In this document: piece after piece, positions 11,785 through 13,018 of the stretch
Layout of the letters: each line of letters starts with the position of its first letter
Position numbering within the stretch: position 1 is the first letter of the stretch
Made by a program: the position numbers and the translations under genes
Assembly: GCA_009739215.1 (NCBI GenBank)
Contig: VSJF01000010.1
Span: forward strand, 496,001 to 560,000
Direction of reading: 5' to 3'
Source: Floccularia luteovirens
Lineage: Eukaryota; Basidiomycota; Agaricomycetes; Agaricales; Squamanitaceae
DNA length: 64,000 nt
Notes under the pieces: generated by a model
What the model saw: only the letters and a program-made list of their open reading frames with translations
What the model was told of the DNA's origin: nothing
Database searches by the model: none

Positions 11785-13018
11785 ATGGCTTTCAAACTCA
11801 ACACTCTTGTACTCTTCACTCTGTTCCTTGTCCCGTTTGCGGTGGCATCTCCCGTTTGTGCACAACCGCTTGGTCTATGTTCATTGCTGACATATATATT
11901 GTGTAGGTCCCCGAGCCAGTCCCTGAGGCCGTTAGTCACTTCCCTTCTCTCCGTTGAGACTTATTAAATTATCATCTCCAGGGAAGCCCCGACTGGAAGC
12001 GCGAAGCTGTAAGTTACTTCATCCGACTCCAACAATAATGAAGGATTAACAAAGTCATGCTAGGGTGGACCCGACTGGAAGCGGGAAGCTGTTAGTTAAC
12101 TTCCTGGTTTATTCCTAGATTTGTATTTTAATGACTTGAATGTGTGTAGGGCAGCCCAGATTGGAAGCGCGGTGGCCCAGACTGGAAGCGCGAGGCAGTA
12201 TGTTATTCTCTCGGATTCTACAGTCTACGAGTTAACATCCTTGTGTGTATAGGGCAGCCCTGACTGGAAACGTGAGGCAGTACGTTGTCCTCTCTGATTA
12301 TACGTAGACCCCATGTTAACAGGCTTGTGTTCGCAGGGCAGCCCAGACTGGAAGCGCGAAGCAGTATGTTGTTCTTTGTGTTTCTATCAGTTTACGGGCT
12401 AACATACATGTGTTGCAGGGCAGCCCAGATTGGAAGCGTGGCAGCCCCGACTGGAAGCGCGAGGCGGTATGTTCTCTCTGATTCTGTACGGTCTGTTGAT
12501 TAACATTCTTGTGCACACAGGGCAGCCCCGACTGGAAGCGTGAACCAGGCAGTCCAGATTGGAAGCGTGGTGGCCCTGACTGGAAACGCGAAGCGGTATG
12601 TCTCTCCGGGTCTACACAATTCCTGAGTTAACACACTTGTGTGCGCAGGGCAGCCCCGACTGGAAACGTGAAGCTGTGAGTTACTCCACCGAAAATATCA
12701 GTCCATGCGTTAACATCATTGAGCTCAGGGTAGTCCCGATTGGAAGCGTGAGGCAGTTAGTTGTTTTTTTCTGGTTCTATTTCGTCATTTGGTTTGACAT
12801 GTATCTATGTAGGGTGGCCCCGACTGGAAACGCGAAGCTGTGAGCTATTCCCTTTCACTCCATCAAGTTCTTTGTTTACATGTCCATGTTTAGGGCAGCC
12901 CAGACTGGAAGCGCGAGGCTGTACGTTGATTCATGTAAATCATGTATATCGGAAACACTAATGATGGGGTATTTAGGGTAGTCCTGATTGGAAGAGGACC
13001 ATCGCGCAGTTGGATTAG
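11785..13018 (+). CDS. Secreted Kex2-type repeat-peptide precursor (16 x GSPDW/GGPDW)
   Basis: Fourteen exons: 11785-11853, 11907-11930, 11982-12008, 12064-12090, 12150-12197, 12253-12279, 12337-12363, 12419-12466, 12521-12595, 12649-12675, 12729-12755, 12813-12839, 12894-12920, 12977-13018. All 13 introns are 51-59 nt with GT and YAG borders, and all are phase 0, giving 173 residues. Residues 1 to about 21 are a signal peptide (hydrophobic core LVLFTLFLVPFAVA). Then comes SPVPEPVPEA, a ladder of X-Pro and X-Ala dipeptides, then 16 copies of GSPDWKR (12) or GGPDWKR (4). Most are followed by EA, one by EP, and the last by TIAQLD. KR is a Kex2 site and EA/EP are substrates for Ste13-like dipeptidyl aminopeptidase, as in yeast alpha-factor and fungal KEP/dikaritin precursors. 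Expected products are pentapeptides. The role (signal, pheromone-like, or RiPP) is unknown. No tailoring enzyme gene is adjacent. Confidence 0.9.
11982..12999 (+). repeat. Tandem exon-intron array, unit about 82 bp
   Basis: Each unit is a 27-nt exon (GGCAGCCCCGACTGGAAGCG plus CGAAGCT or a variant) and an intron of about 55 nt. Exons at 12150, 12419 and 12521 hold two, two and three repeats, as if introns were lost or repeats were duplicated inside the exon. Introns are also related to one another: a TTAACAT-like branch block followed by TTGTGTG-type sequence stands just before the acceptor in introns 5 to 9 and decays towards both ends. The whole unit, not only the exon, has therefore been copied. 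Confidence 0.9.

What the first reader, a model, noticed from the sequence alone, without database searches (positions are those of the whole stretch)
11785..13018. Microexon-encoded repeat-peptide precursor: 16 GSPDW/GGPDW units, mostly one repeat per 27-nt exon
The sequence shows 14 exons and 13 introns, all phase 0 with consensus borders, that assemble a 173-residue secretory precursor with 16 copies of G[S/G]PDWKR. Known Kex2-processed precursors (yeast alpha-factor, dikaritin precursors such as UstA, KEPs) usually carry their repeats in one or a few exons. Here most repeats are separate 27-nt exons between introns twice their length. The repeat core GSPDW is not one I recognise. A gene finder with a minimum exon size would miss it entirely, so it may be unannotated.
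Basis: partly seen in the sequence, partly recalled or inferred. Interest (0 to 1): 0.95.

Follow-up and report, generated by a model that had tools for sequence, protein, structure and literature searches.

The report
Fungal peptide precursor built from microexons
A fungus, probably a mushroom relative, carries a gene in which tiny exons, half of the repeats each in its own 27-letter exon, spell out copies of one five-residue secreted peptide; the protein type is known in mushrooms, but I found no description of this exon-by-exon construction for it.

Summary
At 11785-13018 (+), 14 exons and 13 phase-0 introns of 51-59 nt join into a 522-nt CDS for a 173-aa precursor with a signal peptide (by eye) and 16 G[S/G]PDWKR units. 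It is not chance: synonymous divergence among units is saturated (pS 0.75, pN 0.034), and the units lie in all three unspliced frames, so only splicing can join them. The layout is that of a KEX2-processed repeat protein (KEP) with an alpha-factor-type STE13 signature, predicted to release linear GSPDW (12) and GGPDW (4). That kind is known in Agaricomycetes, and the same cores occur in hypothetical proteins of Pleurotus djamor and Hypsizygus marmoreus. What looks new is the gene architecture: in this genome a DGRDW KEP has 8 repeats in one exon, while a second G[S/G]PDW gene on C16 also has phase-0 introns between repeats. No UstYa match was found on this contig, so a cyclic dikaritin is less likely. 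Splicing, expression and function are untested. New variant of a known kind; interest 0.55.

The parts
11785..11853 (+). Exon 1 (69 nt): signal peptide MAFKLNTLVLFTLFLVPFAVA followed by SP
   Evidence: signal peptide by inspection only (no predictor available); TATA-like ATAAA 63 nt upstream
11907..11930 (+). Exon 2 (24 nt): VPEPVPEA; with SP from exon 1 an XP/XA dipeptide ladder leading to the first repeat
   Evidence: the STE13 reading is an inference from the motif described in PMC6339444 and PMC9769878
11982..12008 (+). Exon 3, 27-nt microexon GSPDWKREA
12064..12090 (+). Exon 4, 27-nt microexon GGPDWKREA
12150..12197 (+). Exon 5, 48 nt, two repeats GSPDWKRGGPDWKREA
12253..12279 (+). Exon 6, 27-nt microexon GSPDWKREA
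12337..12363 (+). Exon 7, 27-nt microexon GSPDWKREA
12419..12466 (+). Exon 8, 48 nt, two repeats GSPDWKRGSPDWKREA
12521..12595 (+). Exon 9, 75 nt, three repeats GSPDWKREPGSPDWKRGGPDWKREA
12649..12675 (+). Exon 10, 27-nt microexon GSPDWKREA
12729..12755 (+). Exon 11, 27-nt microexon GSPDWKREA
12813..12839 (+). Exon 12, 27-nt microexon GGPDWKREA (following donor is GTGAGC)
12894..12920 (+). Exon 13, 27-nt microexon GSPDWKREA
12977..13018 (+). Exon 14 (42 nt): GSPDWKRTIAQLD and stop
   Evidence: the C16 and C1 KEPs of this genome also end in LD
12198..12728 (+). Stretch whose introns 5-9, and less clearly 10, resemble one another: duplicated intron+exon modules
   Evidence: intron 5 against introns 6-10 z 5.5-5.8, pairs among introns 6-9 z 2.7-4.4, intron 10 against 6-9 z 1.8-2.7; TRF periods 82-84 and 128 over 12175-12672

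Best explanation
The locus is a KEX2-processed repeat protein (KEP) gene with an alpha-factor-type layout, in which, at least in the middle of the array, a repeat exon with its phase-0 intron was the unit of tandem duplication. Shown from sequence: the exon chain, 16 constrained units, the linkers after KR between repeats (EA 11, EP 1, none 3 of 15), and matches to the processing-protease families in the same genome. Inferred: after splicing, the precursor enters the ER, signal peptidase cuts after AVA, KEX2 cuts after each KR, a KEX1-type carboxypeptidase removes KR, and a STE13-type dipeptidyl peptidase removes EA/EP (and SP-VP-EP-VP-EA before the first unit). This would release up to 16 linear pentapeptides per precursor, 12 GSPDW and 4 GGPDW, into the medium. 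The most likely role is a short secreted signal or biotic-interaction peptide of the DW-ending mushroom KEP group rather than a mating pheromone (role: a guess, about 0.5). The microexon layout most likely arose by duplication of exon-intron modules and persists because every exon is symmetric, so it need not be regulatory. The confidence given is for the gene being a spliced KEP of this kind.
For: Gene model and splice signals, near the two clear STE3-gene introns in size and borders. pS 0.75 against pN 0.034 over 16 units; neutral simulation about 0 of 16 intact. Units lie in all three unspliced frames and no unspliced ORF holds more than 3. Paralog on C16 with the same core, a first intron at the corresponding place, the LD end and phase-0 introns. 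One P_proprotein (KEX2-type) match, one DPPIV_N gene and S10 carboxypeptidase matches. Related fungal proteins with xPDW-KR-XA/XP units. Linear KEP peptides ending in ADW were detected in Pleurotus and Lentinula fruiting bodies (PMC9769878; parts 1, 2, 4 of 9 and passages seen). Introns 5-9 related to each other.
Against: No transcript evidence. Signal peptide judged by eye. Introns 2 and 12 lack a clear branch site and donor 12 is GTGAGC. Outer introns show little similarity to the central ones, and a pair from two different genes reached z 3.4, so z near 3 is weak: a common module origin is shown only for the middle. The microexon structure in sister species could not be tested. C. cinerea has three KEX2 genes (PMC9769878) and only one match was found here (lower bound). 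Six C. cinerea KEP knock-outs had no phenotype (PMC9769878), which favours no particular function.
Confidence: 0.85

Rival explanations
1. Precursor of a cyclic dikaritin-type RiPP, with the tryptophan cross-linked by UstYa-type enzymes.
For: Same precursor layout. The genome has 3 UstYa (PF11807) matches. Umemura 2020: of 76 KEPs like the putative basidiomycete pheromones (STE13 type), 17 (22%) have DUF3328 genes nearby, and one DUF3328-linked KEP type has W accompanied by P.
Against: None of the 3 UstYa matches is on contig C2 (exons split by introns could be missed), and none of 19 window ORFs scanned hits UstYa (the window holds more ORFs than that). The core has no Tyr. DUF3328 neighbours are reported for only 103 of 1680 basidiomycete KEPs (PMC7329392, passages).
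Confidence: 0.08
2. An alpha-type mating pheromone precursor.
For: KR-EA/EP grammar as in alpha-factor; Le Marquer 2019 notes such proteins in Basidiomycota (PMC6339444, passages).
Against: No STE2 match in the genome (but no control genome rang either, so weak). STE3 matches lie on C22, C21 and C14, not on C2. Basidiomycete pheromones are a-type (PMC6339444, PMC9769878). Core unlike alpha-factor (recalled).
Confidence: 0.04
3. A decayed or never-spliced repeat, not a working gene.
For: Overlapping tandem repeats; no expression data.
Against: 16 of 16 units intact with saturated synonymous change; no stop inside the spliced CDS; splice signals kept in introns that hardly resemble each other; a second gene keeps the same core.
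Confidence: 0.03

Closest known systems
Agaricomycete KEPs with C-terminal -DW/-W cores and STE13 motifs (Vogt et al. 2022, PMC9769878)
   Same: Signal peptide, dibasic-bounded short repeats, XA/XP dipeptides, cores ending in DW (for example SGVAADW), linear product
   Different: Its main text mentions 'intron' once (cDNA cloning) and 'exon' never. Core here is the pentapeptide G[S/G]PDW
Hypothetical proteins P0046 (Pleurotus djamor) and P0052 (Hypsizygus marmoreus)
   Same: Identical GSPDW / GGPDW cores followed by KR or RR
   Different: Only 4 and 3 copies of G[S/G]PDW; exon structure not available here
Saccharomyces alpha-factor precursor
   Same: KR-EA repeat grammar and KEX2/KEX1/STE13 processing logic (as described in PMC6339444)
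   Different: Different peptide, different phylum; no STE2 receptor found here (weak test)
Dikaritin precursors (ustiloxin, phomopsin type)
   Same: KEX2-bounded repeats in a secreted precursor
   Different: No UstYa match on the contig, no Tyr in the core, STE13 linkers present
Schistosome micro-exon genes (PMC4350168, passages)
   Same: Coding region made mostly of small symmetric exons of a secreted product
   Different: No homology tested; there alternative splicing makes protein variants, here the exons are near-identical units and splicing variation is untested
Tetrahymena 90-bp-exon LRR genes (PMC6564038, passages)
   Same: Tandem arrays of equal-length exons of one phase, explained there by exon shuffling and unequal crossing over
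   Different: 90-bp, phase-2, LRR proteins; here 27-nt, phase-0, one complete peptide plus cleavage signals per exon

Membership tests
KEX2-processed repeat protein (KEP) | N-terminal signal peptide | tested here: inconclusive
   By inspection a hydrophobic stretch and AVA|SP site; no predictor run
KEX2-processed repeat protein (KEP) | Several near-identical repeats separated by dibasic KEX2 sites | tested here: met
   16 G[S/G]PDW units each followed by KR
KEX2-processed repeat protein (KEP) | Actual cleavage by KEX2 | not testable with these tools
   One P_proprotein (KEX2-type) match is in the genome
STE13-signature (alpha-factor-like) KEP | XA or XP dipeptides after the dibasic site | tested here: met
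   Of 15 linkers between repeats 11 EA, 1 EP, 3 none; DPPIV_N gene in the genome
Dikaritin | UstYa/DUF3328 genes beside the precursor gene | tested here: not met
   0 of 3 genome matches on C2; genes split by short exons could be missed
Dikaritin | Cyclised, modified core | not testable with these tools
   Needs mass spectrometry
Ascomycete alpha-pheromone | Ste2-type receptor in the same species | tested here: inconclusive
   No match, but the control rang nowhere
Schistosome micro-exon gene type | Most coding sequence in small symmetric exons | tested here: met
   All 14 exons are multiples of 3 and phase 0; 9 of 14 are 27 nt or less. By nucleotides those 9 exons hold 240 of 522. Analogy only
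Schistosome micro-exon gene type | Variation by alternative splicing | not testable with these tools
   No RNA data

The most novel reading that the evidence does not exclude
The array is a splicing-tunable peptide dispenser. Because every internal repeat exon is symmetric, phase 0 and carries complete peptides plus their cleavage signals, any combination of exon skipping keeps frame and processing grammar. The fungus could then set peptide dose and the GSPDW:GGPDW ratio by regulated splicing. I found no description of a fungal peptide precursor built as such a microexon cassette array.
Probability: 0.12. Interest if true: 0.85.

Novelty: new variant of a known kind. Interest (0 to 1): 0.55.

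Why it matters
The three KEP surveys that I looked into start from predicted proteins (PMC6339444, PMC7329392, PMC9769878); my own crude six-frame scan saw only the three-repeat exon of this gene. If such genes are common, catalogues of fungal signalling peptides have a blind spot. The gene is also a clear case of an exon-intron module array in a peptide precursor: within one genome an eight-repeat single-exon KEP and a microexon KEP can be compared. And it gives concrete masses for a peptide whose core is shared by Pleurotus and Hypsizygus proteins.

Tried and rejected
Rejected or downgraded: a dikaritin cluster (no UstYa match on the contig; a simple scan found no KEP array in L044 and L045 around the UstYa genes, but that scan also missed the C16 and C3 KEPs, so this is weak); a link to mating receptors (STE3 matches are on other contigs); Umemura type G-1/P-2 (#7) as the home of this KEP (reported with high Tyr content); SP7-type effectors as an example of an exon per repeat (the passages seen report one conserved intron before the first repeat); Qsp1 of Cryptococcus as a relative (passages: matured outside the cell by Pqp1 and imported by Opt1; kept only as a precedent that a basidiomycete peptide can signal).

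The statement that I found no such architecture described for KEPs rests on the searches, whose long lists were shown only in part, and on word searches inside PMC9769878, PMC6339444 and PMC7329392 ('intron' 1, 0, 0; 'exon' 0, 0, 0). Supplements were not readable and most subscription papers are not held.

Results against my reading: outer introns do not clearly resemble the central ones; the C16 gene model is hand-drawn, one donor (GTCTGA) and one acceptor (AAG) are off consensus, and the acceptor of its intron 2 had alternatives; outside the three KEP places the WKREA pattern is at the level of its control (6 against 9); a share of STE13-type basidiomycete KEPs do lie near DUF3328 genes (17 of 76), for which I raised the dikaritin odds from 0.06 to 0.08 when checking this report.

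Full report
What is there. The window is part of contig C2 of an unnamed 27-Mb assembly in 22 contigs. That it is a fungus, probably a basidiomycete, is inferred from STE3-type receptor matches at several places on three contigs and from KEP relatives mostly in Agaricomycetes; no name could be obtained. At 11785-13018 a script joined 14 exons through 13 GT-AG introns, all phase 0, into 522 nt coding for 173 residues. Exons 3-14 carry 16 G[S/G]PDWKR units: 12 GSPDW and 4 GGPDW. Eight exons are exactly 27 nt with one unit, exons 5 and 8 have two, exon 9 three, and the 42-nt last exon one.

Is it real. Splice signals are regular: 12 of 13 donors GTNNGT, 13 of 13 acceptors YAG, 11 of 13 with a YTRAY site beginning 18-25 nt before the intron end. 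Of three gaps looked at in an STE3 gene of this genome, two gave clear introns of 49 and 50 nt with similar borders (branch-like site at 15 nt) and one gave none. Intron lengths are not multiples of three in 8 of 13 cases, so the units lie in all three genomic frames and no unspliced ORF holds more than three. Over all pairs of the 16 units pS is 0.75 and pN 0.034; the only amino-acid change within the seven-residue unit is Ser/Gly at position 2, and 6 of the 8 variable columns are third codon positions (P 0.003). In a simulation in which all sites change as much as three four-fold sites do, the mean number of intact units was 0.00025 of 16. Purifying selection on the same codons in three genomic frames implies that splicing is used, though no RNA has been seen.

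Within-genome relatives. A core pattern search found 27 hits: 16 here, 5 in one place on C16, 6 scattered, one of which lies in the C3 frame described below; reversed-pattern control 3. The C16 place reads as a 123-aa precursor of 5 exons, all phase 0, with 4 GGPDWKR and 1 GSPDWKR units, the first intron at the corresponding place and the same LD ending (hand-drawn; some sites off consensus). A WKREA pattern search gave 20 hits: 11 here, 3 at one place on C1, 6 scattered; control 9. The C1 gene has one 59-nt intron after the signal peptide and then 8 DGRDW units in a single exon, each preceded by XA or XP dipeptides. A KEP-like frame on C3 has DQDW/NQNW units in one open frame. The junction pattern AARMGNGANSCNGTDNGT, made to find KR[E/D][A/P] followed by a donor, occurs 12 times in the genome, 10 of them in this gene; control 6. 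So the exon-per-repeat layout appears special to this gene, with the C16 gene showing a looser form; a layout with other linkers would have escaped this pattern.

How it arose. Introns 5 to 9 resemble each other (intron 5 against 6-10: z 5.5-5.8; pairs among 6-9: z 2.7-4.4), intron 10 less clearly (against 6-9: 1.8-2.7), and tandem-repeat periods of 82-84 and 128 nt cover 12175-12672: here the duplicated unit is exon plus intron. Outer introns are hardly alike (most z below 3, a few up to 3.7, while a pair from two different genes reached 3.4) although their exons are. This means older duplication or separate intron origin; it was not resolved.

How it most likely works. Signal peptidase would cut after AVA, leaving SP-VP-EP-VP-EA-GSPDW, a pure XP/XA ladder up to the first unit. 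After each KR between repeats the linker is EA (11), EP (1) or nothing (3). This is the STE13 signature described for alpha-factor and for basidiomycete KEPs (PMC6339444, passages; PMC9769878, parts 1, 2, 4 of 9 and passages). The genome has one P_proprotein match (C. cinerea has three KEX2 genes), one DPPIV_N gene (3 matches at one place) and 39 S10 carboxypeptidase matches (which of them is KEX1 was not worked out). The predicted products are linear GSPDW and GGPDW. Linear KEP peptides ending in ADW were detected in Pleurotus and Lentinula (PMC9769878), which makes this outcome plausible; the role stays open, since six KEP knock-outs in C. cinerea showed no phenotype there.

What it is probably not. 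No UstYa match lies on C2 (0 of 3), the core has no Tyr, and Pfam finds nothing in the precursor. Against this, 17 of 76 STE13-type basidiomycete KEPs in one survey have DUF3328 genes nearby, so the linkers alone do not exclude a modified product. No STE2 was found (weak), and STE3 matches are elsewhere.

Comparison with known things. Two protein searches with this gene gave 29 distinct proteins (9 at E up to 1, 28 at E up to 0.01, 8 shared; the profile itself held three of the hits, and only the candidates sharing most words were scored). I read 21 of the 29. Of those 21, 6 hold an exact G[S/G]PDW core followed by KR or RR: Pleurotus djamor, Hypsizygus marmoreus, Hebeloma cylindrosporum, Crassisporium funariophilum, Elasticomyces elasticus and Westerdykella ornata; a seventh, P0007, ends in GSPDWK. 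So the peptide belongs to a recurring group of fungal KEPs. None of the 9 hits was a close copy of this precursor (34-55% identity over 24-82% of it). The KEP papers that I searched inside do not use the words intron or exon about repeats. [quoted passage not shown] Exon arrays of other kinds exist: schistosome micro-exon genes (PMC4350168, passages) and Tetrahymena 90-bp-exon LRR genes (PMC6564038, passages).

Verdict. A constrained gene that must be spliced to make sense; a KEP by layout; a new variant because many of the repeats are delivered as symmetric microexons. Interest 0.55: surprising to people who study fungal peptides and gene structure, but the protein kind and even the core are already represented in mushrooms, and no regulation by splicing is shown.

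Noticed in passing
window 1561-2319 (-): Single-exon, apparently secreted Cys-rich protein with six tandem repeats, five of them ending in GSEGCWGCC. Of 32 database hits 6 are from Aspergillus species (the best-scoring one, A. stella-maris, 51% identity over 89%) and others from Agaricales: patchy distribution, possible horizontal transfer.
   Followed up: partly
window 44976-62756 (+): Several similar open frames that look like a tandem array of cytochrome P450 genes or pieces; of two pieces scanned, 51800-52831 matched Pfam p450 and 44976-45470 matched nothing.
   Followed up: no
L043:2826-3208 (-), contig C1: KEP with 8 DGRDW units and XA/XP linkers in a single exon after one 59-nt intron; the same DGRDW core is in the unnamed database protein P0054.
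   Followed up: partly
L048:1471-1926 (+), contig C3: KEP-like frame with DQDW, NQNW and PPPDW units and EP/VA linkers.
   Followed up: partly
L044 (C21:1114073 and 1115530) and L045 (C3:18973): UstYa-domain matches, two of them on opposite strands 1.2 kb apart on C21; a crude scan that also missed two known KEPs found no repeat precursor within these stretches.
   Followed up: partly
window 17623-18993 (+): Two adjacent open frames in one frame separated by a single stop codon, looking like an F-box-type protein by eye; no Pfam match for either.
   Followed up: no
upstream of three KEP start codons (window 11722; L003; L043): TATA-like motif 62-67 nt before the ATG in each of the three genes examined.
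   Followed up: no
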